From NCBI GenBank assembly GCA_030538425.1, contig JAUNTZ010000020.1, forward strand, positions 1-41,925: a stretch of 41,925 bases of DNA. Reading direction: 5' to 3'. The DNA comes from Paracoccus sp. (in: a-proteobacteria). GTDB lineage: Bacteria; Pseudomonadota; Alphaproteobacteria; Rhodobacterales; Rhodobacteraceae. Position 1 is the first letter of the stretch. Every line of letters begins with the position of its first letter. The position numbers and the translations under genes are program-made. Below, in pieces: positions 1-36,807 of this stretch. The notes beneath the pieces were generated by a model that saw nothing but the letters and a program-made list of their open reading frames with translations, did no database searches and had not been told where the DNA came from.

Positions 1-2
1 TG

Positions 3-128
3 GCCGAGCTGATCGCCCATGCGCGTGAGCATGAGCGGCTGATCTCTTCGGGGATCAGCCCCGAACAATTGGCAACTGCGCTGGAGGTTCTGGACACGAT
101 CATCGCGAATCTGCGCGGCGGTCGTTAG
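3..128 (+). CDS. C-terminal end of a probable MarR-type regulator (partial)
   Basis: An open frame enters from the left edge and ends at a TAG at 126-128, giving about 41 residues rich in Leu, Ala, Glu and Arg with a long amphipathic helix near the end. The pattern (helix, 'ISPEQ' turn, helix 'ALEVLDTIIANL') resembles the dimerisation helices closing MarR-family regulators, but the DNA-binding part lies outside the window, so the family call is only an inference. It converges on the TpsB gene, whose stop codon is 17 bases away on the other strand. Confidence 0.45.
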   Translation, partial: AELIAHAREHERLISSGISPEQLATALEVLDTIIANLRGGR

Positions 129-145
129 GTCGCCAGCTTACGGCA

Positions 146-1807: not shown

Positions 1808-1814
1808 CGCTCGG

Positions 1815-3992
1815 TCACAGTCCGGGAAGCCAGCGCAGCAGGCCGGGTGCTTGCGGCGCGATCACCGGAAACTCAGGCACCTGCACATCGTCGCGGCCCG
1901 CAGTTAGCGTCACGCTACCGCCAGCCTCAACCGCATCGCCTTCGATCCGCGCCGCTTGCGCCGTCTCAACCGTGACATCGCCATCGCGCGCGATCACCCA
2001 ACCGTCCTGCCCGCGCACAGCCAGCCACGCAGAGCGAGAATTCCAAAAGCTGTGCAACCCGCGCGGGCGATGAATGACAACCGGCAGATGCAGGGCGACG
2101 GCTTCCAGCTGATCCGCGCGGATCGTGACCGCATCATCCGCCGCCAGAACAGCGCCGATATTGCGCGCGACGCCCTGCGCCTCAACCGTCAACTCGCCAC
2201 CGGCCTCGATTCTGGCGCCGTAGGTCAAAACCTCATCGCCCGACGAGGTCGTCCGACAGATCAGCCCGCATCTGCGCGTCAGCTCAACCCGGCCGACCGC
2301 GCCGGTTATGTTCTCAAACCCGTTGCCCCGGATCGTGACATCGCCATCATGCGCCGAAATCGTCGCGCCATGGTTCAGGACATCACCCTCGGCCCGCAGC
2401 GAGACACCCTGCGTCGCCGTTATCAGCGTGTCGAACTGAGGCGCAGGACCGGCCCCGAAATCATAGACAAGGTTCTGGCGACGCTCTCGCTTGAGGCCAA
2501 GACTCCAAAGCGTCCGGCGGCCCCGTGTGCGTTCATTGGTGATGCTGGGCGCCGCATAATGCCAGCCCGTCGCAAATGTGTTGTGGATATCACCAGATGC
2601 GGCAAGCCTGACCGAACCATTCGCAATGATCCGGCCTTCGCTATTCGTGATCGTGCCACCGGCGGCGACATCCACATCCCCGGAGGCGGCAAAAATGGTC
2701 GCGGCGTGGTTTTGCCCGACATTCACGATATCATCGGCCGCCCTGATGGTGACCGCACCCGCAGTCGCAACACCGTCGGGTGTCCGCAATTCAGGATAAG
2801 CCAGCCCGCCCTGAAGCAAGGCGCCGTGATTGACGATGCTGCCAGAGCTGCTGAGGATCATGCTGCCATTGCGGGCCACGATCTCTGTCTGACGATCCGC
2901 GCCGTGGAACGACAAATCGCCCGATGTTATCAGAACATGACCTTCGGCCTGCAAAAGACTGTCGCCAAAACGCGCTTGGCCGGTCTCGACAATCGCCGAA
3001 CCGCCCGCCCGAACTTCGCTGCCCACAACGTCAAGCTGCTCTGTGCTTTGCATCGCCAGATCGCGCGCAGCCGAAATATTGCTGTTCGAAAGGCGCGTGG
3101 TCTGGCCTGAGATATGGACAGATCCCGCGCTGTCGATCCGGGCCGAAGATATCTCGATCTCACCATCGCTGCGCAGTGCAAAGCCGCGCGCGCCCGCATA
3201 GCCCTCCCCGGCAAAGCGGACCCCTGCGCCATCGCCATTGACCTCAATGCCAATGTAATGCGCGCGCAGCACACCCCCGGCGGTGATCTCGATCAGGCCC
3301 GAGCCGCCGCCATCAGACCGGCGTGTCTGCGCCCAATCCGCGCCGACATTCCCCGGCACAACAGAGCTGTCGAACTCGGTCCGCGAGCGCCCTGCGCTCA
3401 GCCGCAACCGGCTGGATTCATGTGAGGAACTATTCTCAACCGGCCCAGCCACACGAATTTCATGGGCAATCAGATCGACCGCATCCATCTGCCCCGACAG
3501 GCCGCCCGCCCCAACGCGAATGACGCCCGCTTCGACCGTGGCCACCGGATTGATCTGGAACACGCCCGGCGCGATTTGTTGATCATGAAACGAGATCGAG
3601 CCGGTGGTCAGCGCGACCCGCCCGGTATTCACGAAGCGCGCGCCGTCAAGCATGATCCCGTTCGGGTTCGCGACGATGACATGCGCACGCTGCCCCACCA
3701 CCTCGACCGGGCCCGCAATGTGAGACGGCCTGGAACTTGTCACTTCGTTGACAATGGTGCGGGCCGCGCGTTCGCGATTGTCGAGACGGGCGCCCGGGCG
3801 GTTCACGTCAAACCGATCATAGCGGTTATGGCTCACCCCGCTTTGATTGGCGGGCGCGATGCCGACAGTCACGCTTCCATCCTGCCCAAGCGTCACAATC
3901 GTGTTCGTGCTGCCATCGGGAATGATCTGAGCGCCCGCCGGATGGCAAATGATCGCCGCGATAATGGCCGCCCGCCAAAACCCGCGCGCCAT
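1815..3992 (-). CDS. Short TpsA exoprotein (filamentous haemagglutinin type) without a toxin tip
   Basis: A 725-residue secreted protein. After a signal peptide (about residues 1-21, ending PAGA) comes a TPS secretion domain with the SGVSHNRYDRFDV and TIVNEVTSS blocks and the hallmark NPNGI at 109-113. It is clearly related to the N terminus of the large CdiA at 12870-21701. The remainder is a beta-helix-like series of degenerate repeats (DGDVTI/GGSVTL type). It lacks a pretoxin motif, a HINT domain and a toxin, and ends in a short hydrophobic tail (APGLLRWLPGL). The end looks natural rather than truncated, because the TpsB gene begins 7 bases downstream. Two bases separate it from the Sel1 gene upstream. 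It could be an adhesin, a scaffold or a toxin-less relic of a second cdiA; the sequence does not decide. Confidence 0.9.
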   Translation of the reverse strand: MARGFWRAAIIAAIICHPAGAQIIPDGSTNTIVTLGQDGSVTVGIAPANQSGVSHNRYDRFDVNRPGARLDNRERAARTIVNEVTSSRPSHIAGPVEVVGQRAHVIVANPNGIMLDGARFVNTGRVALTTGSISFHDQQIAPGVFQINPVATVEAGVIRVGAGGLSGQMDAVDLIAHEIRVAGPVENSSSHESSRLRLSAGRSRTEFDSSVVPGNVGADWAQTRRSDGGGSGLIEITAGGVLRAHYIGIEVNGDGAGVRFAGEGYAGARGFALRSDGEIEISSARIDSAGSVHISGQTTRLSNSNISAARDLAMQSTEQLDVVGSEVRAGGSAIVETGQARFGDSLLQAEGHVLITSGDLSFHGADRQTEIVARNGSMILSSSGSIVNHGALLQGGLAYPELRTPDGVATAGAVTIRAADDIVNVGQNHAATIFAASGDVDVAAGGTITNSEGRIIANGSVRLAASGDIHNTFATGWHYAAPSITNERTRGRRTLWSLGLKRERRQNLVYDFGAGPAPQFDTLITATQGVSLRAEGDVLNHGATISAHDGDVTIRGNGFENITGAVGRVELTRRCGLICRTTSSGDEVLTYGARIEAGGELTVEAQGVARNIGAVLAADDAVTIRADQLEAVALHLPVVIHRPRGLHSFWNSRSAWLAVRGQDGWVIARDGDVTVETAQAARIEGDAVEAGGSVTLTAGRDDVQVPEFPVIAPQAPGLLRWLPGL

Positions 3993-3994
3993 GG

Positions 3995-4810
3995 TCAGTC
4001 ATCCGCGGGCGCAGGTTCAGCCACTTGCGCAGCCCCCGCCTCGATCTCGGCAAGGATGGCCCGCGTGCGCTCTTGCCCTTGGGCGACCTGCTCTGCGGTC
4101 ATTGCGTCCTCCAGTCGGTCACGCAATGCGGCGGCTTCGGGATGCGATTGCGATGCGGCAAGATTGGCATAGCCGTAAGCCTCGACCAGATCCGTCGCAA
4201 CGGCGTCGCCTGCCTCATAGGCGACAGCCATTTCATAAAGACCAATCGCATTGCCTTGCGCCGCGGTCTGCTGGAACAGCCCAAAAGCCGCATCTTCATC
4301 CGTTTCCTTGAGACGAAGCGCGATCAGATTCGTGGCGCCGATATTGCCCTGCTCGGACGAAAGCCGCCAATATTCAAGCGCCTTCTCCTCATCCTGAGCC
4401 ACGCCGCGGCCATCGGCATGAACGACACCGCAATTGAACTGAGCCGTCGCGTCGCCCTCATCGGCCGCATCACAAAGCAACTCCGCGCCGCGCTGATAGT
4501 CGCGGATGACGCCCTGCCCCTCCAGATACATCAACCCCAACCGATTGGCCGCAAGCGCGCTGCCCTGCTCAGCGCCAACCGCGTAAATCGCAGCGGCCTG
4601 CGCCGGATCGGGCATGGCGCCCATGCCAAGCTCCAGCATCCGCCCGAGGTAAAACGCACCATCCGCATCGCCGCCCTCGAACGCGGCCTGAAACTGCACC
4701 GAGGCCGCCTCGACATCGCCCTGAGCCAAGGCGTCAAGCCCCGCTTCAACATCAGAAAGCGCCGGAGCAACCGAAAGAGCGACGCCCGCCGCAGCAAGAA
4801 CAAAACGCAT
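3995..4810 (-). CDS. Secreted Sel1-like repeat protein
   Basis: About 271 residues: a signal peptide (MRFVLAAAGVALSVAPALS) followed by tandem Sel1-like helical repeats, seen in phrases such as 'GAFYLGRMLELGMG', 'AANRLGLMYLEGQGV', 'AQFNCGVVHADGRGV' and 'GLYEMAVAYEAGD'. Such repeats bind proteins. I place the start at the ATG at 4810 because a GAGG ribosome-binding site lies about 6 bases upstream and the signal peptide begins there; ATG 4822 and TTG 4825 are longer alternatives. The stop is 2 bases before the short TpsA gene, so sel1-tpsA-tpsB form one operon. A periplasmic accessory role in secretion or assembly of the TPS proteins is suggested only by position. Confidence 0.85.
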   Translation of the reverse strand: MRFVLAAAGVALSVAPALSDVEAGLDALAQGDVEAASVQFQAAFEGGDADGAFYLGRMLELGMGAMPDPAQAAAIYAVGAEQGSALAANRLGLMYLEGQGVIRDYQRGAELLCDAADEGDATAQFNCGVVHADGRGVAQDEEKALEYWRLSSEQGNIGATNLIALRLKETDEDAAFGLFQQTAAQGNAIGLYEMAVAYEAGDAVATDLVEAYGYANLAASQSHPEAAALRDRLEDAMTAEQVAQGQERTRAILAEIEAGAAQVAEPAPADD

Positions 4811-5269
4811 GGGAAACCTCATCAAATATAGGTGATCCCGTAGGTGATGCGCGCGAAAAATGCAAGGGCGTGGTGGTGAAAAAGCAGCCAGATGGGCCTA
4901 TGGGCGCATAGGTTTTGCAGTATGGTCAAGGCGCCACATCGCGAAGGGTGACCGGCAGTGGTATAGGGGACGATCACGGAGGCTAACGAGCGATCTGCCC
5001 GGGTTGACAGGGGTAAGCTTTAAGCTTTAGGCGCGCATAGCGGTGCTGCGCCGGTGCCGGAGGGGGAATGTTCTGGTGAGGCACGTCTCGCGGGTTCAGC
5101 TGAAGTCACAGAGAGCGGTTGATGGGATTCGAAAGCCCCGCGTTCGGGAGCGACGGCGCAGGTCGCGATACGTCAGCTCAGCGCGCAGCGGGAAGGTATC
5201 TTTTCGCAACAGGGGAGGAATAATTGTTGAGAAAAGATAAGCATGAAAGAAAGCCGCCTACGAAAGCAG
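4811..5269. other. Intergenic stretch, no gene recognised
   Basis: About 460 bases between the Sel1 gene and the last orphan immunity gene. It should contain the promoter of the sel1-tpsA-tpsB operon (minus strand), but I see no convincing -35/-10 pair. A short direct repeat of AAGCTTT lies near 5016-5029. Short plus-strand frames (for example 5043-5240) have Arg-rich composition typical of chance frames. Confidence 0.5.
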
Positions 5270-5737
5270 TCACTTCAAATAGCGCTCACCCGTTGCCGCC
5301 CGCCAACCTTCACCGTCAAAACCGACAGGATAGTTTGGATAACAAATAAGCAAACCCTCAATAAACTCGCCAAACGTCAAAGGCAAATGATTCACGATCC
5401 TAAACGAATCTACAGAAACCAGATGCCAATTAGCACCGGTGTCGAAACCATACGACGTCTCACTGCCATCATCGCCAAAAATCTTAACCGCACCCTTAGA
5501 ATATATTTCATCATCCCCGAAAACATCGGCGGCGGCATCAACCAAACCACCCCGGAAGAAAAACATTAACCCATCCTCCATTTCTCCTGCGCCACGCTCA
5601 GCTATGAACGCCAAATAATCAGAAGGGCATTCGGGAAAACTCGCTCGGATCGCCTCAATACTCTCGGCGCATAAAGGCTTCAAACTCGACAGCAGTTGTG
5701 CCGAGCTTTCGGTTAGCGTATCCAAGTGCTCATACAT
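5270..5737 (-). CDS. Orphan immunity protein, SMI1/KNR4 (SUKH) family
   Basis: A 155-residue protein starting at ATG 5737 (MYEHLDTL...), chosen over an upstream frame extension because AGGA sits about 6-8 bases before it. The layout fits SUKH-superfamily immunity proteins: an 'FPECPSDYLAFIAERGAGE' block near residue 35, a middle 'IFGDDGSETSYGFDTGANW' block and a closing 'LTFGEFIEGLLICYP' helix. SUKH proteins neutralise diverse nuclease toxins in polymorphic toxin systems. It is the immunity member of module 6, the farthest from cdiA, and its toxin (5738-6160) is wrecked. The gene is visibly more A+T-rich than the flanking TpsA/Sel1 genes, consistent with transfer. Confidence 0.8.
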   Translation of the reverse strand: MYEHLDTLTESSAQLLSSLKPLCAESIEAIRASFPECPSDYLAFIAERGAGEMEDGLMFFFRGGLVDAAADVFGDDEIYSKGAVKIFGDDGSETSYGFDTGANWHLVSVDSFRIVNHLPLTFGEFIEGLLICYPNYPVGFDGEGWRAATGERYLK

Positions 5738-6160
5738 ATTTTTTCCTAAATGACTATGACCTGTCGTTGGGTGCCGTCCTACGCCCCACCTCCAAAACCG
5801 TGAACACGACCCCGATCTGTCGCTGTCGAGACTAGATGCAAACTCCACCATTTATTTGGGCCAACATAGCGCTAACGATGTTGCATTGTGCGCCCACCAA
5901 TTAATTCCACGCAAATCGGGCGGTCGCCCCTGGCCATTACTTTTCCTATATCTGCGTTGCGTTCGTGCTTAAGGCGACAAAGGAGGTACGGACGCGTTAA
6001 CAGTGAGATCGTAGGCTCTCACCGGCACGGCGGCAAGCGTCACCTAGGTTACCTCAGACAAAGTGCCGTCGTCGTTCAGCAACCGGCCGCCGGGCTCGAG
6101 GCTCTCGGCCTGCACATAATGGCCGTAAGCGATGGCACCAGAGTAGGAATGCTCCACCGA
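5738..6160 (-). pseudogene. Module 6: degenerate HINT fragment plus toxin remnant
   Basis: From about 6160 down to 5945 the minus strand matches the 3' part of the HINT domain found in cdiA, but with many substitutions, shifts and an amber codon (plus-strand cta at 6044-6046, where intact copies encode Ser). The roughly 205 bases between the HINT end and the SUKH gene should encode the toxin tip, but all three frames carry stops; the clearest relic reads '..VSTATDRGRVHGFGGGA*DGTQRQVIVI*'. The toxin family cannot be named. Its 5' junction (near 6160-6178) is the same as that of module 2. Confidence 0.7.
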
Positions 6161-6261
6161 TACACGGCTTTAGAATGAAATTTCGGCCCGCCAAAACCAC
6201 CTTAGGCATTCGCTGTCCTGAGGCAAGTCAGTTCACAAAGCAGAATCTCGATACCGCAAAA

Positions 6262-6597
6262 TTATGGCCGACTCTGCAATGGCTGAGGCAGCCGCCTGTC
6301 TCGATACCACCAATGAGTGTCGGGCATAGCCGCTTGCAGCTGCAGCAAAATCGCCCACCCTTCGTTAAAAAATGCATCTTCATCATTCTTCGAGGCGAAG
6401 CCTATCCTCGTGTGGAAGTTCTTTTTATCAAGCTCGTAGAGCGCATCAAATTTATCCGACCAACGATTGATCTGATCCACAAGTTGCTTCGGCAACGGCA
6501 GTGTGGCTGGGTCAATGTTATCTGGATTATCCATATCCCAAATTGCCCAGCATTGAACCTCTGCCATCAGCTTCATGCGTTTGTGCTTTGCTATCAT
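6262..6597 (-). CDS. Orphan immunity protein, module 5 (duplicate of the module 1 immunity gene)
   Basis: A 111-residue acidic protein differing at about 7 positions from the product of 10882-11217; the central 190 bases of the two genes look identical. No family is recognised with certainty. The Trp-rich N terminus (CWAIWDMDNPDNID), a 'LPKQLVDQINRWSDKFDALYELD' helix and an 'FFNEGWAILLQLQAAMPD' helix fit small CdiI-type proteins. Its ATG overlaps the TGA of the preceding toxin frame (ATGA), the coupling normal for CDI toxin/immunity pairs. The toxin frame is broken by a stop codon while this gene stays open, suggesting retention for protection. Confidence 0.8.
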   Translation of the reverse strand: MIAKHKRMKLMAEVQCWAIWDMDNPDNIDPATLPLPKQLVDQINRWSDKFDALYELDKKNFHTRIGFASKNDEDAFFNEGWAILLQLQAAMPDTHWWYRDRRLPQPLQSRP

Positions 6598-7095
6598 CGG
6601 AAGTTCGCTCCTACTATAAAGCCGTTATCGCCGAATGTTACTGAAAGCCGATGCGTCTGACCACCATACTCAAATTCATAAATGGGTCGCCCGGTGCCGC
6701 GGCCTTAATAACCAACAACGTTGTTACGCTGCAAAGCAGTAAAGAGCACATTTGGTATTTCCGCCTCCGGGATACCGCGTTGCGCAATTTCTGGACCATG
6801 CTCACCGACAATGTGGCGCAGACCAGCACTTGAATTCCCGGTTTCCAGCCAAACTATCGCTCCGTTGACGCTAGGGATATCGACAACGTTTTTGGGAGTG
6901 ATCCTCGTCTCACCAGCAGAGAGATCGTCGATGAACTGCGTCCTATCTGGGGGCACCCGGGCCGTCGGGAAAATCATTGCGCACCCACACCGGCGCTGCG
7001 TCTGTGCTTGCGGCGACGAAGTAGGTGTCGAGATCGTTAATGGCGAGATTGTAGGCCGTCAACGGCTGGGCGACAAGCGTTACTGCGGTTGCTTC
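6594..7095 (-). pseudogene. Module 5: HINT fragment plus broken BECR-like toxin
   Basis: A second copy of the toxin tip encoded at 11214-11590. Relative to that intact copy it carries a one-base length difference just after the HINT end (near 6950-6975), which puts HINT and toxin in different frames, and a CAA-to-TAA change (plus-strand tta at 6705-6707) in the middle of the toxin. Beyond the stop the same frame continues to match the intact toxin to its end (..GDNGFIVGANFR), so one nonsense mutation separates it from a full toxin domain. The HINT fragment matches other copies only to about 7095. Confidence 0.85.
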
Positions 7096-7253
7096 AGAAA
7101 AACTGGCTTGATCGCTATTAGACTCGCCACCGAGACGAAGGCGCGGACATGCGTCCACTCATATCGTCACTTAACGCGCAACAGACTTTGCGATCTATTT
7201 GGCTGAAAAAGAATTTGATTAAGCTGCATATGCCATCACTGCACGCTATCAGG

Positions 7254-7637
7254 TCACGAAAAAGAAGGAGGATAGGTGATCACCTTTCTTATCGCTGGGA
7301 GCTCTAGACAAAGCACCTCAACCCATTCATTTTGGGTCAGTATAGCCACATGCATAACCTCATCTTTAGCGAACATTCCACAGCTTTGCTCATGAAACCA
7401 ATCTAGAAAATCGGATCCTGTAACCAAGACAATCGGAGCCAGTTGCTTATCGCTGGGGTCCGAAATTGAGGTCATGGCCAAAAACTTTCCTTCGTCCATG
7501 CTTCGCTGAGAGAGAGGCACTCTCCCGAAGTCGATCTCATAGATAGGCCCGTCAGGATTAGCAAACTCGAAAACCCTAACTCTATACCCAGAATCGTCGA
7601 ACCTAAGATCTAGAAAGTCAATTTTTCGGAAAAACAA
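7254..7637 (-). CDS. Orphan immunity protein, module 4 (unrecognised family)
   Basis: A 127-residue acidic protein (FRKIDFLDLRFDDSGYRV..., ...VLVTGSDFLDWFHEQSCGMF...) without signal peptide or membrane segment. I do not recognise the family. It follows the module 4 toxin remnant by about 40 bases on the same strand, the usual place for the immunity gene. The only plausible start I find is a TTG at 7637, with GGAGGA directly in front of it; an in-frame stop lies 6 codons upstream. The close spacing makes initiation there uncertain. The gene is A+T-richer than the backbone. Confidence 0.65.
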   Translation of the reverse strand: MFFRKIDFLDLRFDDSGYRVRVFEFANPDGPIYEIDFGRVPLSQRSMDEGKFLAMTSISDPSDKQLAPIVLVTGSDFLDWFHEQSCGMFAKDEVMHVAILTQNEWVEVLCLELPAIRKVITYPPSFS

Positions 7638-7678
7638 TCCTCCAAAGGAAAGGACTTATGAACTCTTTCAGACATAGA

Positions 7679-8272
7679 CTAATACCTAACATTTATATAC
7701 CCATCTCGGTACTGCAGCTCCAAGGTCGGTTGGCTTGTGTGGTTTATATTCCGATCCGAGCTTGTTGTTTTTACAACGACCCTTGCCCCGTCCGGCAACT
7801 CACCCATTCGGCCAGCCCCACCATTCGGCATCCTAACCTTCGATACATTACTCAACCCTAGCGCATCGAAATCGACATTAGCTTGACTAAAACCACCAGA
7901 CTTTTCTATCTTAACCGAGCGTCCGCCAGCGCTCGGCAAACGTTCCCGCCTGTGATAATATCGTCCAGTGCTCTATTTCCAGTTCCCGCTCCATATGGGC
8001 AAGTATTATGCAACCATACCGGCGCTGCGTTTGTGTTTGCGGCGACGAAGTAGGTGTGGAACTCGTTAACGGTGAGATTATAGGCCCTCAGCGGCTCGGC
8101 GGCAAGCGTCACGGAGGTTACCTCGGACCAGGTGCCGTCGTCGTTCAGCAATCGGTGGCCGGGCACCAGCTGTTCGGCCTGCACCCAATGGCCGTTAGCA
8201 ATATCGCAGGAATAGGAATGCCCTGCTGATGCGCGCCCGGCGGCGTGGGTCGTGCTGACAAAGAACGGGTGG
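7679..8272 (-). pseudogene. Module 4: HINT fragment plus frameshifted toxin tip
   Basis: The HINT fragment runs from about 8272 (where similarity to cdiA stops abruptly) to the VWLHN block near 8005-8015. About 30 codons later the frame is lost: the HINT frame ends '..NVCRALADARLR*', whereas the toxin continues in another frame as '..PSAGGRSVKIEKSGGFSQ..' to a stop at 7679. Removing two bases around 7946-7950 would join the two. The toxin tip (LPDGARVVVKTTSS...PTLELQYRDGYINVRY) has the 'LPDG-V-S-PTLE-Q-RY' ending common at the ends of CDI and Rhs toxins; I know this pattern from family experience but cannot give a firm family name. Confidence 0.8.
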
Positions 8273-8499
8273 TATAGCCAGTAGGATATTGTTTATATTA
8301 TATTGGACATGCCAGACAGTTTTGGGGGCAATTCTAGTTCACATACAGCGACTTCAACGACAGCAACGAACTCATTTGGCGCCTCTAATACTACCCTCCC
8401 AAATGACCGAATTTTCAGTCATGCATCGCGCAAATTACGCCAATATATCATCGAGCATCTAGATTGTTCCGCATGTCACACTCGACACCAGGCCACGCA
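8273..8499. other. Module spacer, nothing recognised
   Basis: About 230 bases of A+T-richer sequence between the end of HINT similarity in module 4 and the immunity gene of module 3. A plus-strand frame (8303-8566) crosses it into the immunity gene, but it resembles nothing and has no clear ribosome-binding site. Confidence 0.4.
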
Positions 8500-8886
8500 T
8501 CACGGCGCGGCCACCACCTCAACCCCACGCGCAGTTATGTGCCAATTGAACTCACGATCAAAGTAAATGTAATGATGATGATCTGGAAATAAAAATTCTA
8601 TTCTTTTAAGATAAGACGAATCTTTGACCAAAAACAAGCCGTTTGTACGATTTACATCCTTGAAATAAGGATAACTTTCCTGCGACCACAGCATTTCATC
8701 GCAGTACATCACAGATGACACCCAATCAAAGACGATCTCTGTATCATTGTCCTCTGGAAACAAAAGTCGCAAGTCACCAACGAAGCTAGGCAAAAGCTGT
8801 CTGGCAACCCCTCTGAAAAGCAGCTGCAATGAGGAATAGGACTCAAAATCCTGCTTTATGTAGGAAACATCGGTAACATTAATCAT
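8500..8886 (-). CDS. Orphan immunity protein, module 3 (unrecognised family)
   Basis: A 128-residue soluble acidic/aromatic protein (MINVTDVSYIKQDFESYSSLQLLFRG...). The C-terminal half has a strand-rich 'LKRIEFLFPDHHHYIYFDREFNWHI' segment. The family is not recognised. Its start ATGATTAA contains the TAA that would end the module 3 toxin frame, so toxin and immunity were translationally coupled. The gene is intact although the toxin is not. Confidence 0.75.
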   Translation of the reverse strand: MINVTDVSYIKQDFESYSSLQLLFRGVARQLLPSFVGDLRLLFPEDNDTEIVFDWVSSVMYCDEMLWSQESYPYFKDVNRTNGLFLVKDSSYLKRIEFLFPDHHHYIYFDREFNWHITARGVEVVAAP

Positions 8887-9370
8887 AGCTAATCGCAGCT
8901 CCTCTTACATATATCGTTGGCGGCCCCGTAACAGCCGTATTCAATCCGCCAGAACTCCGCGCACTAAATACTATAGTCTCCCCGTTTGTACCTAAACCAA
9001 GCAATTTTCCACTGGCGAGTGTAACGTACTACCCACCCACCGCGCTCTCAAAATCGGCCCGAGCCTGATCCAAGCCGCCGTCAGCACGATACTGAAGTTT
9101 GCGACCGCCAGAAACAGTGCCATCGGGGTACACTCGAACGCCGTGGATACCACCGACATTCGTGGGATCGATTAGTTGGTTCGCACCCCCGCCCCATCGG
9201 GACAATCATTATGCACCCAGATCGGCGCTGCGTTTGTGTTTGCGGCGACGAAGTAGGTGTGGAACTCGTTGACGGTGAGATTGTAGGCTCTCAGCGGCTC
9301 GGCGGCAAGCGTCACGGAGGTTACCTCGGACCAAGTGCCGTCGTCGTTGAGCAACGGGTGGCCCGAAGGA
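8879..9370 (-). pseudogene. Module 3: HINT fragment plus broken toxin tip
   Basis: The HINT fragment spans about 9370 to 9205 and ends in IWVHN; its frame stops shortly after (..GAGVRTN*). The toxin continues in another frame as '..IDPTNVGGIHGVRVYPDG..' and 'LDQARADFESAVGG', where a TAG (plus-strand cta at 9029-9031) interrupts. It then resumes in the same frame as 'YVTLASGKLLGLGTNGETI..' to a TAA overlapping the immunity start. There are thus at least two lesions, a frameshift and a stop. The tip has the strand-rich look of CDI nuclease tips, but I cannot assign a family. Confidence 0.75.
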
Positions 9371-9554
9371 AGCCAACTCAAGAGCAGAAGTTCGCTACTG
9401 CAAGCTCCAACCAAATAATCCAACTCATTAATGCAATGGATATGTATATTGGTGCACGGCGCAAGGAAAGGGAGCGTACGCCGATCCGCGCCTCAACAAG
9501 CAGATACTCTTGGTAGATTAGAATAGACCAATATCATCCAGAAGCCAATGCCGG

Positions 9555-10157
9555 CTAAATCTGCACAAAACAAATTCCTGTCAGGTCTGCATCATGCCAT
9601 GCAGACCTAAATTCATCGCTGACCAAAACCTTCCCTTGCGCGCTTGGATTGTACATACCTGAGTAGTGAGTCCTGAAAGCTGTAAGATCAGACACCTTTT
9701 GAGCATCAATTACAAGTTTCTTAATCCCAGACCCATCGGGAAATTTTTCGGAAAGCGCCAAGTCAACACTTTCCTCAACCCATGGCAACCACCACAAATA
9801 GAACTTCTGATCACTATTTACCACATCAAGCGGCAGAACATGCCCTTGCCGCTCAAGAAAAGGTCGCATTTTCTCAACGGCATTTTCCGAAATAAAAGGC
9901 CCAACCACCCCATTGAAGATGCGGTCGAGCTTGTGAAGTTTTTGCCCCCGCGCCTTGAAGTGCAGGCAGACTGGCGCAGGCTTCCAGTCCTCTCTAGGCT
10001 GCCACGATTCAAGATAGAGAGAAACTCTCTTATGCTCTGAAAAGTCTTCTGCTTCCGTCACAGGATCAAATCTCTGCTCTGGATGCCGGCCTAAGGTGGC
10101 AACCCAAGCATTGTTCTCAGTAGGGTATTTCAGGTCAAAAAAAGTCATTTTAGTCAC
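9555..10157 (-). CDS. Immunity protein, Imm11 (DUF1629)-like, module 2
   Basis: A 200-residue soluble protein. The pattern of an N-terminal strand region, a 'DWKPAPVCLHF' segment, 'PFISENAVEKMRPFLERQGHVLPLDV', then 'FYLWWLPWV' and a closing 'VSDEFRSAWHDADLTGICFV' fits Imm11/DUF1629 immunity proteins. From family knowledge these often accompany AHH-type nucleases, which is exactly the neighbour here. Its ATG overlaps the toxin's stop by four bases (10154-10157), so the pair is translationally coupled. Both genes of this module are open, making it a possibly functional displaced pair. Confidence 0.8.
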   Translation of the reverse strand: MTKMTFFDLKYPTENNAWVATLGRHPEQRFDPVTEAEDFSEHKRVSLYLESWQPREDWKPAPVCLHFKARGQKLHKLDRIFNGVVGPFISENAVEKMRPFLERQGHVLPLDVVNSDQKFYLWWLPWVEESVDLALSEKFPDGSGIKKLVIDAQKVSDLTAFRTHYSGMYNPSAQGKVLVSDEFRSAWHDADLTGICFVQI

Positions 10158-10777
10158 CAGTTAATCTCGCCGCGATCAAGTTCATCTGCTATTCGGCGAA
10201 GCACCTGAGGCCTCTGATTGGGAGCAGCACTCCGCAACTGCGCGTTCACATAGTCATAGTACCTTTGAGAGTGAATGACGTCTCTCCGATGAACAGCCTT
10301 GTTATTAGGATTAGGCGTAGTTCTTACACCTGGCAAGGGAACAGCGTTAGCAGGACTGTTAACGTCGACCCCAGCTTCTGCCAAAAGGCTGCAGGCCTCG
10401 TCTGCTCGACGATCATGCCTTGCAACAATGTGGTGAGCCTCCTCGCCCGGATCAAAACGCGTACCTTCCCTTCTCATATTTAAGCGAAGGTCCTGAGTTC
10501 GCGCAACTGTAGAAGCAATTCGCGTTATTATGTTATTTTGCGTCTCCGGCCCGTCGGGACAATTATTATGCACCCAGACCGGCGCTGCGTTTGTGTTTGC
10601 GGCGACGAAGTAGGTGTGGAACTCGTTGACGGTGAGATTGCAGGCCCTCAGCGGCTCGGTGGCAACGGTCACCTCGGACCAGGTGCCGTCGTCGTTGAGC
10701 AACCGGTCACTGGGCTGAAGGTTCTCGGCTTGCACCAAATCGCCGTCAGCGATGGCACCGGAGTGGGAATGCTCCAC
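10154..10777 (-). CDS. Orphan CdiA-CT, module 2: HINT fragment fused to AHH nuclease
   Basis: A 207-residue open frame. Residues 1 to about 71 are the last third of the HINT domain (DRLLNDDGTWSEV.., FHTYFVA, VWVHN at 67-71) with a clean 9-base in-frame deletion relative to cdiA. Residues 110-207 are an AHH-type HNH/endonuclease VII-fold nuclease: EEAHHIVARH with AHH at 114-116, then 'GVDVNSPANAVPLP' and a downstream H163 and HS at 169-170. The HINT part has lost its Cys and splicing half, so it cannot self-cleave. The ATG at 10777 lies exactly where HINT similarity begins, with only a poorly spaced GGAG before it, so independent expression is uncertain. The frame would give a full toxin if recombined onto cdiA. 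Confidence 0.85.
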   Translation of the reverse strand: MEHSHSGAIADGDLVQAENLQPSDRLLNDDGTWSEVTVATEPLRACNLTVNEFHTYFVAANTNAAPVWVHNNCPDGPETQNNIITRIASTVARTQDLRLNMRREGTRFDPGEEAHHIVARHDRRADEACSLLAEAGVDVNSPANAVPLPGVRTTPNPNNKAVHRRDVIHSQRYYDYVNAQLRSAAPNQRPQVLRRIADELDRGEINW

Positions 10778-11714
10778 CGATACACGGCTTTAGAATAAAA
10801 TTTCGGCCCTCCAAAAGGGCCTTAGGCATTCGCCGTCCTGAGGCAAGTCAGTTCAAAAAGCAGGATCTCGATACCGCAAAGTTATGGCCGACTCTGCACT
10901 GGCTGAGGCAGCCGACTGTCTAGGTACCACCAATCAATATCCGGCATAGCCGCTTGCAGCTGCAGCAAAATAGCCCATCCCTCGTCAAAAAATGCATCTT
11001 CATCATTCTTCGAGGCGAAGCCTATCCTCGTGTGGAAGTTCTTTTTATCAAGCTCGTAGAGCGCATCAAATTTATCCGACCAACGATTGATCTGATCCAC
11101 AAGTTGCTTCGGCAACGGCAGTGTGGCTGGGTCAATGTTATCTGGATTATCCATATCCCAAATTGCCCAGCATTGGACCTCTGCCATCAGCTTCATGCGT
11201 TTGTGCTTTTCTATCATCGGAAGTTCGCTCCGACGATAAAGCCGTTATCGCCGACTGTTATTGCAAGCCGATACATTTGACCGCCATACTCAAATTCATA
11301 AATGGGTCGCGCGGTGCCGCGGCCTTGATAGCCAACAACGTTGTTACGCTGCAAGGCAGTGAAGAGCACATTTGGTATTTCCGCGTACGGGATGCCGCGT
11401 TGTGCAAATTCTGGACCATGGCGACCGACAATGTGGCGCAGACCAGCACTTGAATTCCCTGTTTCCAGCCAAACTGTCCTTCCATTGACAATACGGATAT
11501 CGACAACGTTTTCGGGCGTGATTTTCGCCCCACCAGCAGAAACATCGTCGATGAGCTGCGCTCTATCTGACGCCTCCGGCCCATTCGGACAACTATTATG
11601 TACCCAGATCGGCGCTGCGTTTGTGTTTGCGGCGACGAAGTAGGTGTGGAACTCGTTAACGGTGAGATTATAGGCCCTCAGCGGCTCGGCGGCAAGCGTC
11701 ACGGAGGTTACCTC
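10681..11714. repeat. Duplicated block, copy A (HINT piece, immunity, toxin, HINT piece)
   Basis: Partner of 6061-7095. The junction after the immunity gene (plus-strand gctccaccgatacacggctt at 10779-10798) is identical in copy B at 6151-6178, so the arrangement, not only the genes, was duplicated. Beyond the HINT piece at the low-coordinate end the two blocks continue into different toxins (AHH in module 2, unknown in module 6). Confidence 0.85.
10882..11217 (-). CDS. Immunity protein, module 1 (cognate of the BECR-like toxin)
   Basis: A 111-residue acidic protein that starts at an ATG overlapping the toxin TGA (ATGA at 11214-11217). It is nearly identical to the product of 6262-6597, and the family is not recognised. 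Features are a Trp/Asp-rich N-terminal third, a central amphipathic helix and the C-terminal 'DIDWWYLDSRLPQPVQSRP'. The role as antidote is inferred from its strict association with the same toxin in two modules. Confidence 0.82.
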   Translation of the reverse strand: MIEKHKRMKLMAEVQCWAIWDMDNPDNIDPATLPLPKQLVDQINRWSDKFDALYELDKKNFHTRIGFASKNDEDAFFDEGWAILLQLQAAMPDIDWWYLDSRLPQPVQSRP

Positions 11715-12347
11715 GGACCAGGTGCCGTCGTCGTTGAGCAACCGGTCGCCCGGCTGGAGGTTCTCGGCCTGCACCCAATGACCGTCAGCGATCTCGCCGG
11801 AGTACGAATGTTGTGCCGAGGCGCGTCGGGCGGCTTGGGCCGAGCTTACAAAGAACGGGTGGATGCGATTTGAGATGATGTCTTGCTGCGCGCCAGTCGA
11901 AAGGTCCGTGATTTCGACGGTCACGGTCGTATCGTAATCGTTCGCGTAATGGGCCTGAACGGGCTGCCACCCGACCCGGTCCGTCGCATTATCGCGCGAC
12001 CAGACTGACATGGTTGTGGTCACGTCACGGATTGGAAGAAGGCCGGCCTCGGTCAGAACAAGGGTGTCGCCATGGAAGGAACAGGCGCGTGTCCGCGATT
12101 GGTTTGGCGATGGAAGCGCCTCAACTATCTCATCGCCAGACTTGCGGAAATATTTGCCGCCCATTCTGATGAGGCTGCCGCCTGGAACAACAGAGGCAAG
12201 TGCAAATGCGCAGGCGAAAGCATCGCCCTCATTCACGCAACTGTAAGCGTCCACCGCCGTTCCAACACCGGGAACCAAGACCTCGGCGGCAAGCTGAAGT
12301 CCGTCAGCTATGTAACCATTCGTTCCCGCAGAAGCGGGCTTAGTCAC
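11214..12347 (-). CDS. Orphan CdiA-CT, module 1: pretoxin-HINT-BECR-like RNase
   Basis: A 377-residue open frame starting at GTG 12347. From residue 10 (NGYIADG) it follows CdiA from about residue 2601. Parts: a pretoxin segment (LVPGVGTAVDAYSC..), a complete HINT domain with Cys89 at its start (CSFHGDTLVLT), an IHPF block near 162-165, FHTYF near 233-237 and the terminal HN at 250-251, then a toxin at 252-377. The toxin has 'GLRHIVGRHGPEF' (H305, H310), 'EIPNVLFTAL' and strands to 'DNGFIVGANFR', a layout I associate with BECR-fold (barnase/EndoU/RelE-like) RNases; this is moderate, not certain. It has no signal peptide or TPS domain, so it cannot be exported alone. The start codon is preceded by only a weak ribosome-binding site. 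Confidence 0.88.
   Translation of the reverse strand: MTKPASAGTNGYIADGLQLAAEVLVPGVGTAVDAYSCVNEGDAFACAFALASVVPGGSLIRMGGKYFRKSGDEIVEALPSPNQSRTRACSFHGDTLVLTEAGLLPIRDVTTTMSVWSRDNATDRVGWQPVQAHYANDYDTTVTVEITDLSTGAQQDIISNRIHPFFVSSAQAARRASAQHSYSGEIADGHWVQAENLQPGDRLLNDDGTWSEVTSVTLAAEPLRAYNLTVNEFHTYFVAANTNAAPIWVHNSCPNGPEASDRAQLIDDVSAGGAKITPENVVDIRIVNGRTVWLETGNSSAGLRHIVGRHGPEFAQRGIPYAEIPNVLFTALQRNNVVGYQGRGTARPIYEFEYGGQMYRLAITVGDNGFIVGANFR
11683..12023. repeat. HINT identity tract, orphan copy
   Basis: Over about 340 bases this sequence is identical, base for base by eye, to 13261-13601 inside cdiA (offset 1,578). Immediately on both sides the copies differ at roughly one base in ten. This is the signature of recent gene conversion or crossing-over within the HINT domain. 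Confidence 0.85.
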
Positions 12348-12431
12348 TCGCTAGATTAACTCTCGACTGCGCCCTTCCCGGTCTGTCGAGTGTATTGTTT
12401 GAGGCGCTACAACGCTCCGGCGCGGTTTCAG

Positions 12432-12460
12432 AAATTAGACAAATTCCCCAATGTTGTCAA
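12432..12460 (-). promoter_or_regulatory. Possible promoter for module 1
   Basis: On the minus strand a perfect TTGACA (-35; plus-strand 12455-12460) is followed after 17 bases by TAATTT (plus-strand 12432-12437), a poor -10. It lies about 85 bases upstream of the module 1 GTG. The good -35 and correct spacing are suggestive; the -10 is weak. Confidence 0.3.
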
Positions 12461-12569
12461 TTGCATATCAGCGCAATAACTTGGCGCGGCTCCTCCAAAA
12501 GCTGATATTTCCCGACGCGGCTTTCTCACCGATTTGCACAAACGCAAGCATGAAAGCTGTAATCAGGTT

Positions 12570-12596
12570 AAAAAAGCCCGGTTGGGGAGGTCCGGA
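12570..12596 (-). terminator. Possible terminator of cdiA-cdiI
   Basis: On the minus strand, 15 bases after the immunity stop, CCGG (12595-12592) and CCGG (12581-12578) can pair, with one G-U extension and a loop of about 10 bases. A run of six T follows (12575-12570). The stem is short, so termination is plausible but unproven. Confidence 0.35.
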
Positions 12597-12610
12597 TGCG
12601 GCACGGCATC

Positions 12611-12859
12611 TCAATAGACAAGCTTAAATCGCTCCTGATCTACATCACCGAACAACGACAAAAAACTGCGGGCTGATGAGACAGACCCGCTAACATCCTG
12701 GGAAGAGAGCGACGAAAAGTCAGCAATTCCACCTAAGTCCGGTGTAATCCTGCCATCAACACAAATAAATCGCTCCACTCCAAAAATAAATACCTTATCT
12801 TTCTCACATGCATTAATAAACCGGAGCGCTTGGTCCGCAGTCAAAAATTCCGTTTCCAT
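12611..12859 (-). CDS. cdiI: CdiI immunity protein paired with the colicin E5-like toxin
   Basis: I place the start at ATG 12859 (METEFLTADQALRF..), 10 bases after the cdiA stop, giving 82 residues. An open extension to 12931 would overlap the toxin by about 60 bases and is less likely. The product is small and acidic, with an N-terminal helix (ADQALRFINACEKDK), strands (VFIFGVERFICVDGRI) and a Ser-rich helical end. Colicin E5 immunity is of similar size (about 83 residues) and a loosely similar helix-strand start, but I cannot claim homology by eye. Its role is inferred from its place directly behind the CdiA toxin tip. Confidence 0.8.
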   Translation of the reverse strand: METEFLTADQALRFINACEKDKVFIFGVERFICVDGRITPDLGGIADFSSLSSQDVSGSVSSARSFLSLFGDVDQERFKLVY

Positions 12860-12869
12860 CTTGCAACTC

Positions 12870-15800
12870 TCAATCAAAGGGTGATGCCCAATTTGGATTA
12901 GTGCGATCCGAGATTTGAACGATATCTCCACTCCTGTCGCTTCTCACAACATAAGAGCCATCTACGTTAATGTAAGCAGTTGCAGGATCATCATTTCGCG
13001 CACCAGTTTGAGGATTATGCCGAATGTCACGTGTTGTGACCGTCCGGTGTGGTTGCGCGATTGTCTCGTCAATTGAAGTTCTATCCCAGCCTCGGCGGCC
13101 TATTTGCCGTTCAATCTTAGGCGCAATTTGCGTTACTATGTTATTTGGGGGCTCCGGCCCATCGAGACAACTATTATGCACCCATACCGGCGCGGCGTTT
13201 GTGTTTGCGGCGACGAAGTAGGTGTGGAACTCGTTGACGGTGAGATTGTATGCCGTCAGGGGCTCGGCGGCAAGCGTCACGGAGGTTACCTCGGACCAGG
13301 TGCCGTCGTCGTTGAGCAACCGGTCGCCCGGCTGGAGGTTCTCGGCCTGCACCCAATGACCGTCAGCGATCTCGCCGGAGTACGAATGTTGTGCCGAGGC
13401 GCGTCGGGCGGCTTGGGCCGAGCTTACAAAGAACGGGTGGATGCGATTTGAGATGATGTCTTGCTGCGCGCCAGTCGAAAGGTCCGTGATTTCGACGGTC
13501 ACGGTCGTATCGTAATCGTTCGCGTAATGGGCCTGAACGGGCTGCCACCCGACCCGGTCCGTCGCATTATCGCGCGACCAGACTGACATGGTTGTGGTCA
13601 CATCACGGATTGGAAGAAGTCCGGCATCCGTCAGGACAAGGGTGTCGCCATGGAAGGAACAGGCGCGCGTCCGCGACTGATTGGGCGACGGAAGTGCCTC
13701 AATTATCTCATCGTCAGACTTGCGGAAATACTTCCCGCCGAGCCTGAGGAGACTGCCGCCCGGAACAACAGAGGCAAGTGCGAACGCGCAGGCGAAGGCA
13801 TCGCGCTCGTCCACGCAAGTGTATGCGTCTACCGCCGTTCCAACGCCGGGAACCAAGACCTCGGCGGCAAGCTGAAGTCCATCAGCTATGTAGCCATTTC
13901 TTTCTGCGTCTGCTGCCAATATGATAGCAGTGCAAGCGGCCGCGTCCAGTTGCGGACAAATGCGCGCGCGCCGCTCGGCCATTCTGGTGTTTTCCCGGAT
14001 ATAATGGTGTGTGATTCTATCGTAAGCATCGCGATTTCGGGTTATGGGCCAGTCACCCACATTCATTCTATTCGCCCAATAATTTGTCATCTCCCCGGAC
14101 ATTTGACGCGCGGCAAGAATTTCATTCAGATGGCGATTAAGGCAGACGTCGTCGTATCGCGCGGCACATTCGTCAAGGTCAGCCTGATTCGCCGCACTGA
14201 TTTCAGCAAATGAAGGGCCATCGCCCCCTTCATTGTACCAAATGTTAGCAATACAGTCTGCGGCTGCCCGATCACGCTTATCGCCACACTCTCGCTCCAG
14301 CCGCCTTTTATAAATCGCCAGATCATCATGCCCGAGATAATTATTCTCAAACGCACTCTGCGCGATCTGCGCCCCAAAGCCGACATTTATCGCGTTTCCG
14401 TCCGCGAAGACAAAGCCCACCAAACCGCCGAGCAGATGCGCGAAGCGTGACCCCTTGTCGCTATCCTGCGAGCCCTCCCCGTTCTTCGCCCATTCATGGC
14501 TGACGGCTGCGAAGAACCCGGCCGCGCAATTGCCACCCATCTTTTCCATGGCGAAGCAGCCAAAGCTGCCATGCAGCATCAGATGGGGCAGTGAGCCCTC
14601 CCAGCCTTCGCGACCATAGCCGATCTCACCAATCCCATGGTGAACAATCGCCATGGCTTCGCCGATGACAAAGCTGCGGCCAAGCTGATCGAGGCCCGCG
14701 AAGGGTGCTCGGCCTCCGGCGACGTTATCGACCGTGTTCGAGACCAGCTGCGCGCCCAGGCGGTCCATGATCTCCCGCTGTCCGAACCTAGCAGACGGAA
14801 GGCCCGCAATAATGGGCTGATCCCTGTCCAGCCCAAGCATCTCACCCAGGCGGAACCTGCTCGACAGGGCGTTCGAGATATCGGCGGTGACGCCGGCCAT
14901 CAGGGCGCTGCGGATGGACTCTTTCGGGTCGAACTGTCCGGTGATCGCGCCCGCGATTGCATCATTGGCCAGCCGGTTCACCATCGCGCTCTGGATATGC
15001 CCCAGACCGAGCCCACCCGTCACATAGCCAATCGCCAGACCAAGCGCCGCCTGGAAGGCCGGGTTCAGGCGCACCTGCCGGTCATACCATTCCTGATTGC
15101 GCAGCGAGATCGTCTCATAAGTCGCGCCATGCTCATTCAGCAAGGTGGACAGATAGGCGTAATCGCCGCCAGACGGCAGTTTGTAGTCATAATGATGGGT
15201 CAGGTCCCGGACCTGCGCCGCGGCCCCGACCCGATCCTCTGGTGTAAAGATATCCACCATGCGCCGGTCCAGCGGCGCATTGCCATAAGTGGCGGTGATC
15301 ATGCTGTTCAGACTTGGCCCGCGATAGCCCGCAATGGTGACCGGCCCGCCGACCGTGAAACTTGCCGGACGGATCGAGCGGATCTGCGGCAGCGAGGCGG
15401 ATTCCACCACCCGGCCTCGCTGGATCTCGGTGATCGTGACCATGTTGTCGCGGGTCGAGCGGTAGCTGTGGCTGACCGAATTGATCGCGGCGCGGATGTC
15501 CAGATTACCCGCCGCCGTGACCCGCACCTCACGACCGCGAAGGCTTCCGGCGATGATCTGAAGGTTGTTGGATGAGTTGAGGCTGAGGATTTCATCGGCA
15601 ACAAAATCATTGCCATAGCTCATCAGCACCCGCTTTTCGTCCTCGCTGCTGCTGCGACCCATCGGGATAATCGAGAAAAGCGAGCGTTTGGTCTGGCGCG
15701 ACTCTTCGGTGACGCTTTCCTCGTCATAGGTGCCCAGAAGAATGCTGCCAAAGCGGTGGTTCGTGCGCACATCGACATCGCGCGCCGAGATCGACGTGCC

Positions 15801-21701: not shown

Positions 21702-22138
21702 CTAAGAAATAAAATATCACATTCGCGTTAACTCAGAAGGGCGATGCGATCAAGGTTTTTGTGGCGCGAGCTGTGGGATTGAGGCGCGACTGCGACAGGG
21801 CGCGCCATGAGGTCCGCGCGTTGCAGAAATCACAGCCGTCCTTTATTCGCTTTCCTGCGGTTTTAAGTGCCTTGGGCCGCACTGGTCTGGATCGAGTTTT
21901 AGCGCGCTATAGCGACATGATCGAATGCGAACCCTTCAGCAGCCGAAAACCGCAAGGCAGGCCCTCAAGAACGACAGGCGCCGATAAAAGCGGCACAACC
22001 GGATTGAGATGATGCTCGGACGGCTCAAGGACTGGCGACGCGTCGCGCCCCGCTAGGACAGATGCACAAGAGTCTTGCTCTCCGCTGTTGCCGCCACAGT
22101 CCGCAGCCCCGCGCCCAAACGGCATCACGAAAATCAGC
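21702..22138. other. Intergenic stretch upstream of cdiA
   Basis: About 440 bases between cdiA and the VIT-like gene. It should hold the cdiA promoter (minus strand). An A+T-rich patch (plus-strand 21705-21720) lies directly before the start and no clear -35/-10 pair stands out. No coding frame on either strand looks real. Confidence 0.5.
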
Positions 22139-22636
22139 CTATCCCGCGCCCATCCTGCCCAAGCCCACACCGATACCAAACACAATCGCGCCACCAACCA
22201 CGACTTGCAGGATCGTGCTGGCCAGCCGTCCGCCCATGAAGCGCCAGCGGACATAGGCGATCACGATCAGCTCGATCACCACCACCGCATAAGCGACGCG
22301 CAGCGCGGTTTGGATGTCGGGCAAAAGAAATGGCAGCGTGTGCAGCATCCCGCCCAGCGCCGTGGCAAAGCCCGTAATCGCGCCGCGCTGCAGCGGGCCG
22401 CCGCGCCCGGTCACGCTTCCATCATCGGACAGCGCCTCGGCCAGACCCATGCTAACCCCGGCCCCCAGCGACGCGGCGAGCCCGACATAGAACGCGGTCA
22501 TCGGATGGCCCGACAGGCCTGCCGCCGCGAAAATCGGCGCAAGGGTGGAGACTGAGCCATCCATCAGCCCAAGCAGCCCCGGTTGAATTTTTTGCAAAAT
22601 CAGTTTCTTGCGGTCTGAATCGTAACTGTCTGGCAT
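22139..22636 (-). CDS. VIT1/MbfA-like membrane iron transporter, lacking the ferritin-like domain
   Basis: A 165-residue integral membrane protein starting at ATG 22636, with GGAGG about 6 bases ahead. The text '[28 protein letters not shown]', '[30 protein letters not shown]' and '[12 protein letters not shown]' matches the C-terminal VIT1/CCC1-like membrane domain of MbfA (erythrin-VIT) exporters, which move Fe2+ across the membrane. MbfA normally carries an N-terminal ferritin-like domain; here the protein begins directly at the membrane part. Its start overlaps the stop of the CLC gene (TGATG), so the two are coupled. Confidence 0.8.
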
Positions 22637-36763: not shown

Positions 36764-36807
36764 GCCTCAGCATGCGCGACAAACAACCATCAGGCAAGGA
36801 GGCGCTG

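What the first reader, a model, noticed from the sequence alone, without database searches (positions are those of the whole stretch)
5270..12859. Array of six displaced CDI toxin/immunity modules, decaying with distance from cdiA
Seven immunity genes follow one cdiA on the same strand. In the modules next to cdiA the toxin frames are open (modules 1 and 2). In modules 3 to 6 the toxins carry frameshifts and stops, and module 6 is barely recognisable, while every immunity gene is open. This fits stepwise insertion of new tips at the cdiA end, older ones being pushed away and losing the toxin while immunity is kept. It would be a readable history of past toxins in one strain, still protecting against siblings that use them.
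Basis: partly seen in the sequence, partly recalled or inferred. Interest (0 to 1): 0.8.

Follow-up and report, generated by a model that had tools for sequence, protein, structure and literature searches.

The report
Displaced toxin-immunity array behind cdiA
A Paracoccus bacterium carries, behind its contact-killing gene, a stack of six older toxin tips with their likely antidote genes; the far toxins are broken while most antidote genes are still open, a kind of gene array already known from other bacteria.

Summary
The array is real. In this Paracoccus-genus MAG, cdiA (TPS domain, PT-HINT, Colicin E5 tip) is followed on the same strand by its putative immunity gene and six displaced HINT-toxin-immunity modules (12347-5270). 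Toxins 1 and 2 are open; 3-6 carry frameshifts and/or stops. Corrections: immunity gene 4 is itself frameshifted near its start, and modules 1 and 5 are one toxin type. The block HINT-toxin-immunity-start of next HINT recurs at ranks 1|2 and 5|6 above different modules, and the junction behind immunity 4 recurs in another Paracoccus above another toxin: HINT-bounded cassettes move, which supports insertion by HINT recombination. HINT divergence is a step (6-9% in modules 1-4, 19-25% in 5-6), not a clock, and identical tracts of 341 and 189 nt point to recombination between copies. Immunity genes show fewer disabling changes (p 0.04 to 0.16 by counting rule) and lower pN/pS than displaced toxins, the reverse of a live pair: modest evidence. 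Arrays of this type, their 'fossil record' reading and immunity retention are in print. New member of a known kind.

The parts
12870..21701 (-). cdiA, 2943 aa: TPS domain, PT-HINT (about 13640-13170), Colicin E5-type ribonuclease tip (about 13133-12879)
12611..12859 (-). imm0, putative immunity to the current tip, 82 aa, no Pfam or NCBIfam family
11214..12347 (-). module 1: pre-HINT region + full HINT + toxin 1, open; match to cdiA starts at about 12320
   Evidence: toxin 1 is 68.6% identical over 118 aa to the live tip of a Rhizobium ruizarguesonis plasmid CdiA
10882..11217 (-). imm1, 111 aa; 57% identical to the gene directly behind the Rhizobium cdiA
10154..10790 (-). module 2: truncated HINT + AHH-type nuclease toxin, open
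9555..10157 (-). imm2, about 200 aa, weak Imm11 similarity (below cut-off)
8879..9372 (-). module 3: truncated HINT + toxin remnant with frameshift and in-frame stop
8500..8886 (-). imm3, 128 aa, full length beside a 78% identical homologue alone on contig C53 of the same genome, pN/pS 0.19
7679..8274 (-). module 4: truncated HINT + toxin 4 with frameshift; an intact relative exists in L024
7254..7637 (-). imm4, open only from a TTG; frameshifted near its N-terminus relative to L024
6594..7105 (-). module 5: truncated HINT + second copy of the toxin 1 type, with frameshift and in-frame stop
6262..6597 (-). imm5, 94% identical protein to imm1, open
5740..6170 (-). module 6: decayed HINT (frameshift, two in-frame stops) and about 200 nt of unrecognised toxin remnant
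5270..5737 (-). imm6, 155 aa, open; no Pfam or NCBIfam family; one 31% homologue on a Rhizobium plasmid; immunity role rests on position
13261..13601 (-). 341-nt tract identical to 12023-11683 in module 1's HINT, inside a 747-nt pair with 45 differences
10987..11175 (-). 189-nt tract in imm1 identical to 6555-6367 in imm5, inside a pair with 131 differences in 1119 columns
10582..11717 (-). cassette copy A (HINT1 3' part - tox1 - imm1 - spacer - HINT2 start), paired with copy B at 7098-5954
5954..7098 (-). cassette copy B (HINT5 - tox5 - imm5 - spacer - HINT6 start)
3995..4825 (-). Sel1-repeat protein gene
1815..3992 (-). short second TpsA (725 aa, TPS domain)
146..1807 (-). TpsB/CdiB-type outer-membrane transporter (ShlB, POTRA)

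Best explanation
A CDI locus whose cdiA tip has been exchanged about six times. Each exchange brought a cassette made of the 3' part of a HINT, a toxin, its immunity gene, a spacer and the 5' start of the HINT that had followed it in the donor. Homologous recombination between HINT sequences put the cassette onto cdiA and pushed the old tip downstream, under that new truncated HINT. Displaced toxins no longer have the cdiA export part and probably are not made, so they drift and break; immunity genes keep their own start codons and are lost more slowly. Shown here: the anatomy, cassette boundaries, reuse of one junction above different modules, identical tracts between copies, broken toxins 3-6. 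Inferred: insertion always at cdiA, circular or linear donor DNA, no production of displaced toxins, expression of and protection by the distal immunity genes.
For: HINT remnants before all six displaced modules. A cassette-length block recurring at 87% with different modules below; the immunity proteins are unrelated by BLASTP except imm4 and its L024 relative (imm5 not entered, being the imm1 type). Junction imm4 - spacer - HINT5 shared with L024 within a 1229-nt match at 80%, then a different toxin. 341-nt identity between the HINTs of cdiA and module 1: third-position differences in 26 of 99 codons of the 5' flank against 1 of 114 in the tract, that one at its border (entered as 0 of 113). 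Toxin 1 and imm1 are a live tip and its neighbour in a Rhizobium CdiA. G+C 0.515 in 5270-12347 against 0.629 in 1-4825 and 0.621 in 14500-21701. Fewer disabling changes in immunity genes and lower pN/pS than in paired displaced toxins, although between live loci the toxin is the better conserved partner (68.6 against 57% with Rhizobium, 53.5 against 32% with Pantoea). A lone imm3 homologue without a HINT or tox3 match in the 16 kb taken around it lies elsewhere in the same genome.
Against: imm4 is itself damaged. The excess of codon position 1-2 changes on the module 5 side of the toxin (13 of 16, against 6 of 15 on the module 1 side, p = 0.03) is not seen with the Pantoea outgroup (11 of 17 against 8 of 12). 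Toxin 5 against imm5 on that branch is not significant (p = 0.14). Under stricter counts the disabling-change test gives p 0.07 to 0.16. Other arrays keep open displaced toxins: both toxin parts in L024 (though the HINT before the second has two in-frame stops and a third HINT piece has no toxin) and 2 of 2 in L047, so decay is not general. HINT divergence is not monotonic with rank. No expression data. MAG sequence: some indels could be assembly errors.
Confidence: 0.77

Rival explanations
1. Mainly a dead end: displaced modules are junk that decays at equal rates, and the open immunity frames are shorter targets, chance, or recent conversion copies.
For: By module, 4 of 6 toxins against 1 of 6 immunity genes broken gives Fisher p = 0.24; imm4 is frameshifted; the near-identity of imm5 to imm1 is largely a 189-nt identical tract without one synonymous change in 63 codons, which protein-level selection does not explain; under stricter counts p rises to 0.07-0.16.
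Against: Main per-nucleotide count favours immunity genes (p = 0.04); imm4 pN/pS lower than the tox4 piece in 4962 of 5000 bootstraps; imm3 full length.
Confidence: 0.3
2. The array is a working repository: displaced toxins are kept for redeployment by recombination onto cdiA (the alternative model in PMC3150448 and PMC4927057).
For: HINT sequences of modules 1-4 are only 6-9% from cdiA's over the core and share exact runs of 53-341 nt with it; toxins 1 and 2 are open.
Against: Toxins 3-6 are broken; redeployment by simple recombination would delete the modules between.
Confidence: 0.2
3. Internal rearrangement rather than serial import: the modules 1|2 and 5|6 match arose by duplication within the locus, so rank carries no time order.
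For: 1146-nt block at 87%; conversion-like tract between the two copies; order of sel1, short tpsA, tpsB and cdiA circularly permuted compared with G080, which fits tandem duplication and loss.
Against: The block ends in HINT at both sides with different neighbours, and its HINT ends are 18-29% diverged by 60-nt window; HINT5's 5' end matches the L024 junction, not HINT1.
Confidence: 0.25
4. The breaks in modules 3-6 are sequencing or assembly errors of the MAG.
For: Indels occur in several modules; a transporter at 36772-38324 also appears split between two frames.
Against: cdiA is open over 2943 codons; in-frame stops occur in modules 3, 5 and 6, and divergence is raised in HINT5 and HINT6.
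Confidence: 0.08

Closest known systems
Orphan cdiA-CT/cdiI arrays (PMC3150448, 2011; Poole et al., author name recalled; passages read)
   Same: cdiA followed by displaced CT/immunity pairs, up to eleven; fragments keep varying lengths of upstream cdiA sequence; [quoted passage not shown]
   Different: junction sequence here is PT-HINT, not VENN; alphaproteobacterial; four toxins visibly broken; the orphan pairs they tested were functional
'Fossil record' model of orphan CDI modules (PMC4927057, 2016; Ruhe et al., author name recalled; passages read)
   Different: decay of toxins by rank is not discussed in the passages seen
Acinetobacter type-II cdi remnants (PMC6336857; passages read)
   Same: step-wise 5'-3' accumulation of displaced cdi remnants, immunity genes predominating
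   Different: other pretoxin modules; illegitimate recombination proposed for insertion
T6SS immunity gene arrays of Vibrio cholerae (Kirchberger et al. 2017, PMC5361080; passages read)
   Same: sequential displacement with loss of effectors and retention of immunity genes
   Different: T6SS, not two-partner secretion
Rhs C-terminal tip displacement (Jackson et al. 2009, PMC2935791; passages read)
   Same: strings of displaced tips with variable core length, proposed to enter by crossover with a circle
   Different: Rhs core, enterobacteria; cores reported identical within a locus there, mosaic here

Membership tests
CDI two-partner system | large exoprotein with N-terminal TPS domain | tested here: met
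   PF05860 E 2e-38 at residues 56-305
CDI two-partner system | polymorphic C-terminal toxin behind a pretoxin domain | tested here: met
   PT-HINT and Colicin_E5 at the C-terminus; PT-VENN only weak (E 2e-4)
CDI two-partner system | TpsB/CdiB transporter in the locus | tested here: met
   ShlB/POTRA protein at 1807-146, but downstream of the array, not directly before cdiA
CDI two-partner system | immunity gene directly behind cdiA that neutralises the toxin | tested here: inconclusive
   ORF of 82 aa directly behind cdiA, without a family; neutralisation cannot be tested here
Orphan cdiA-CT/cdiI array | displaced fragments homologous to cdiA upstream of the toxin, same orientation | tested here: met
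   6 of 6 displaced modules hit by cdiA's HINT, all on the minus strand
Orphan cdiA-CT/cdiI array | each fragment followed by an immunity ORF | tested here: met
   6 of 6, imm4 damaged; pairing shown by a live relative for modules 1/5 only
Orphan cdiA-CT/cdiI array | displaced toxins lack translation start signals | tested here: inconclusive
   HINTs of modules 2-6 are truncated and module 1's frame opens with a GTG before its HINT; initiation not tested
Sequential displacement with immunity retention | order of modules records order of arrival | tested here: inconclusive
   cassette junctions fit it; divergence does not act as a clock; no sister strain with a partial array was found
Sequential displacement with immunity retention | immunity genes outlast toxins | tested here: inconclusive
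   p 0.04 to 0.16 by counting rule; pN/pS lower than toxins; Fisher by module p 0.24
Sequential displacement with immunity retention | distal immunity genes expressed and protective | not testable with these tools
   no expression data or assays

The most novel reading that the evidence does not exclude
The HINT pretoxin domain doubles as the integration arm: cassettes bounded by HINT sequences enter cdiA by a HINT crossover, so each truncated HINT start names the cassette that arrived above it, and tracts such as the 341-nt identity mark the latest insertion. Conversion between duplicate immunity genes (imm1 and imm5) refreshes the older immunity copy while its toxin rots. The array would then be readable module by module from junctions, not from divergence.
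Probability: 0.3. Interest if true: 0.5.

Novelty: new member of a known kind. Interest (0 to 1): 0.36.

Why it matters
It is a clear alphaproteobacterial case of a displaced CDI array in which toxin decay and immunity retention can be compared module by module, with one cassette type present twice in one locus and one junction shared with another species. That makes the published 'fossil record' and immunity retention ideas measurable in one genus, and it warns that divergence of the repeated pretoxin cannot be used as a clock.

Tried and rejected
HINT divergence as a clock by rank: rejected (tree support values 38-76). My first reading, that imm5 outside the identical tract shows no constraint, was dropped after counting sites (dN/dS 0.25 over codons 78-111, 6 synonymous and 6 non-synonymous changes). 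Homologues of imm1, imm6 and imm2 in 125 genomes of the genus: only in the window's own genome. imm3 in 240 class genomes: only the own genome. Plasmid collection: imm0, imm2, imm3 and L024 imm4 no match; imm1 5 records, imm6 1. Families: NCBIfam gave only weak chance-like matches for two of ten queries, PADLOC none for nine, no Rfam match in 4800-22700. Promoter-like and terminator-like sites are at chance level (10 against mean 8.1; 9 against mean 9.3), so transcription of the distal genes cannot be argued from sequence. Papers on CDI in Paracoccus or Rhodobacter: 3 papers hold at least three of the four terms; from titles and abstract starts none is on CDI in these genera. The Rhizobium homologue of imm6 was not studied beyond its annotated neighbourhood. 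One search lists a TAA for modules 2 and 6; by the frame map it lies before the HINT, in the shared junction, and was not counted. One search checked HINT 6 over too short a stretch behind its indel; one search repeated it.
Full report
What is there. The window is the whole contig C52 of a 2.69-Mb MAG, 86.6% complete. Its only hit in the named genome collection is Paracoccus sp. S5R_Sa_37 (L024), whose contig has the length and array of G048:C18, and G048 is of the same genus as the window's genome. All genes of interest lie on the minus strand. cdiA (21701-12870) has a TPS domain, PT-HINT and a Colicin E5-type tip. Behind it come imm0 and six modules, each a HINT piece, a toxin or its remnant and a putative immunity gene, down to 5270, then a Sel1 protein, a short TpsA and a TpsB. 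G+C is 0.515 in the array against 0.629 in 1-4825 and 0.621 in 14500-21701.

State of the modules. Toxins 1 and 2 are open, toxins 3-6 broken. From the frame map and alignments I count disabling changes by rank as 0, 0, 2, 1, 2, 3 (Spearman 0.88, 16 of 720 orders as good or better; 0.80, 36 of 720, without the last stop of HINT 6). Toxin 2 is an AHH nuclease. Immunity 4 is not whole: in L024 the toxin 4 and immunity 4 pair is intact, and comparison shows a frameshift in the window's toxin 4 and another near the start of its immunity gene. The other five displaced immunity genes are open. imm3 is full length beside a 78% homologue that stands alone on contig C53 of the same genome, with no HINT or tox3 match in the 16 kb taken around it.

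Pairing. Toxin 1 and imm1 match the live tip (68.6%, 118 aa) and the next gene (57%, 107 aa) of a CdiA-like protein on a Rhizobium ruizarguesonis plasmid, and more weakly a Pantoea pair. This supports displaced module 1, and module 5 of the same type, as true tip/immunity pairs. For the other modules the pairing rests on order, and for module 4 on the same order in L024.

The moving unit. A self-comparison gives one long gap-poor match, 11717-10582 to 7098-5954, 87% over 1146 nt. It runs from the HINT of module 1 through toxin, immunity and spacer into the HINT of module 2, and likewise from 5 into 6; beyond it no match continues. imm6 and imm2 are unrelated by BLASTP. In L024 a 1229-nt match at 80% runs from HINT4 through toxin 4, immunity 4 and spacer into HINT5, and then the two genomes carry different toxins. 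So two cassette types, each with its lower HINT start, have each been seen above two different modules. This is what HINT-to-HINT recombination predicts, and it parallels the VENN-to-VENN boundaries of PMC3150448 (passages). L024's array lies between ORFs that I read as rplP and a threonine dehydratase (names by resemblance). A search of G048 with this cdiA's TPS domain found nothing (the same query finds five other genomes of the genus besides the own one), so there the array appears to stand without a cdiA of this kind.

Recombination tracts. cdiA's HINT and module 1's HINT differ at 45 of 747 sites but are identical over 341 nt (13601-13261); 0 of 20000 random placements of the differences give such a run. 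Third codon positions differ in 26 of 99 codons of the 5' flank and in 1 of 114 of the tract, that one at its border (entered as 0 of 113 in the Fisher test). imm1 and imm5 share 189 identical nt within a pair with 131 differences in 1119 columns, again 0 of 20000, with 0 of 63 third positions changed inside against 8 of 48 in the rest of the gene (p = 0.0009). The random-placement control ignores codon structure; the third-position counts do not, but their borders were chosen after seeing the data. Both point to crossover or gene conversion between copies.

Not a clock. Core HINT distance from cdiA is 0.07, 0.09, 0.07, 0.06, 0.19, 0.25 for modules 1 to 6, a step with Spearman 0.55 (98 of 720). 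The difference between cdiA and module 1 in the 5' flank is mainly synonymous (pN/pS 0.12, 95% 0.05-0.24), so most of it probably arose while both were parts of working cdiA genes. Differences of modules 5 and 6 are spread over codon positions, as expected of decay.

Immunity against toxin. In modules 3-6, 8 disabling changes fall in 2029 nt of HINT and toxin and 1 in 1620 nt of immunity genes (p = 0.04). With the small indel near the end of imm4 counted p is 0.11, with one stop of HINT 6 left out 0.07, with both 0.16. pN/pS is 0.17 for imm4 and 0.40 for the toxin 4 piece against L024 (4962 of 5000 bootstraps in that order), 0.25 and 0.47 for imm1/5 and tox1/5 (4186 of 5000), 0.19 for imm3 against C53 (synonymous sites near saturation in imm3). 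Between live loci toxin 1 is better conserved than imm1, so the order is reversed in displaced modules, in keeping with relaxed toxins. Against this: by module the difference is not significant (Fisher p = 0.24); polarising with Rhizobium suggests a relaxed toxin 5 (p = 0.03) but with Pantoea it does not; toxin 5 against imm5 on that branch gives p = 0.14; in L024 both toxin parts are open, although the HINT of the second has two stops, and in L047 2 of 2 displaced toxins are open.

How common. cdiA's HINT found 5 of 148 relatives, own genome included, only G048 closely, and 5 of 345 genomes drawn across the family, own included, of which G307 (L047) has a three-HINT array. The TPS domain of this cdiA was found in 6 of 125 genomes of the genus, own included. 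In G080 the order is sel1 - short tpsA - tpsB - cdiA (named by resemblance; both TPS domains matched), a circular permutation of the order here.

Known or new. Orphan CDI arrays, their reading as a fossil record, stepwise displacement, and immunity retention after toxin loss are in print (passages read, not whole papers). What this window adds is an alphaproteobacterial case with HINT as the boundary, a cassette present twice, mosaic tracts and a measurable toxin/immunity contrast. I rate it a new member of a known kind, interest 0.36.

Noticed in passing
G000:C62:35690-35971 (L026 about 10691-10969): A further, more distant HINT remnant (48%) near a contig end of the same genome, followed by small ORFs that could be immunity genes: possibly a second displaced array.
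   Followed up: partly
G000:C53:12550-12930 (L046): A lone homologue of imm3 (78%) with no HINT or tox3 match in the 16 kb taken around it.
   Followed up: partly
window 146-4825 and 12870-21701; L058: Order cdiA - array - sel1 - short tpsA - tpsB here, but sel1 - short tpsA - tpsB - cdiA in G080: a circular permutation that could reflect duplication and loss of the locus.
   Followed up: partly
L024:9470-12350: Displaced modules between ORFs that look like rplP and a threonine dehydratase in Paracoccus sp. S5R_Sa_37, without cdiA beside them.
   Followed up: partly
L047:1-4970: A related array in another genus of the family with two displaced modules, both toxins open.
   Followed up: partly
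L060:645-4036: In G079 two similar ORFs that could be immunity genes lie behind cdiA with other small ORFs between them.
   Followed up: no
window 36772-38324: An MFS-type transporter appears split between two frames; a real lesion or an assembly indel.
   Followed up: no
window 10821-10805: Terminator-like hairpin behind imm1 that is not in the scan's list at the matching place behind imm5 (the scan's total is at chance level).
   Followed up: no
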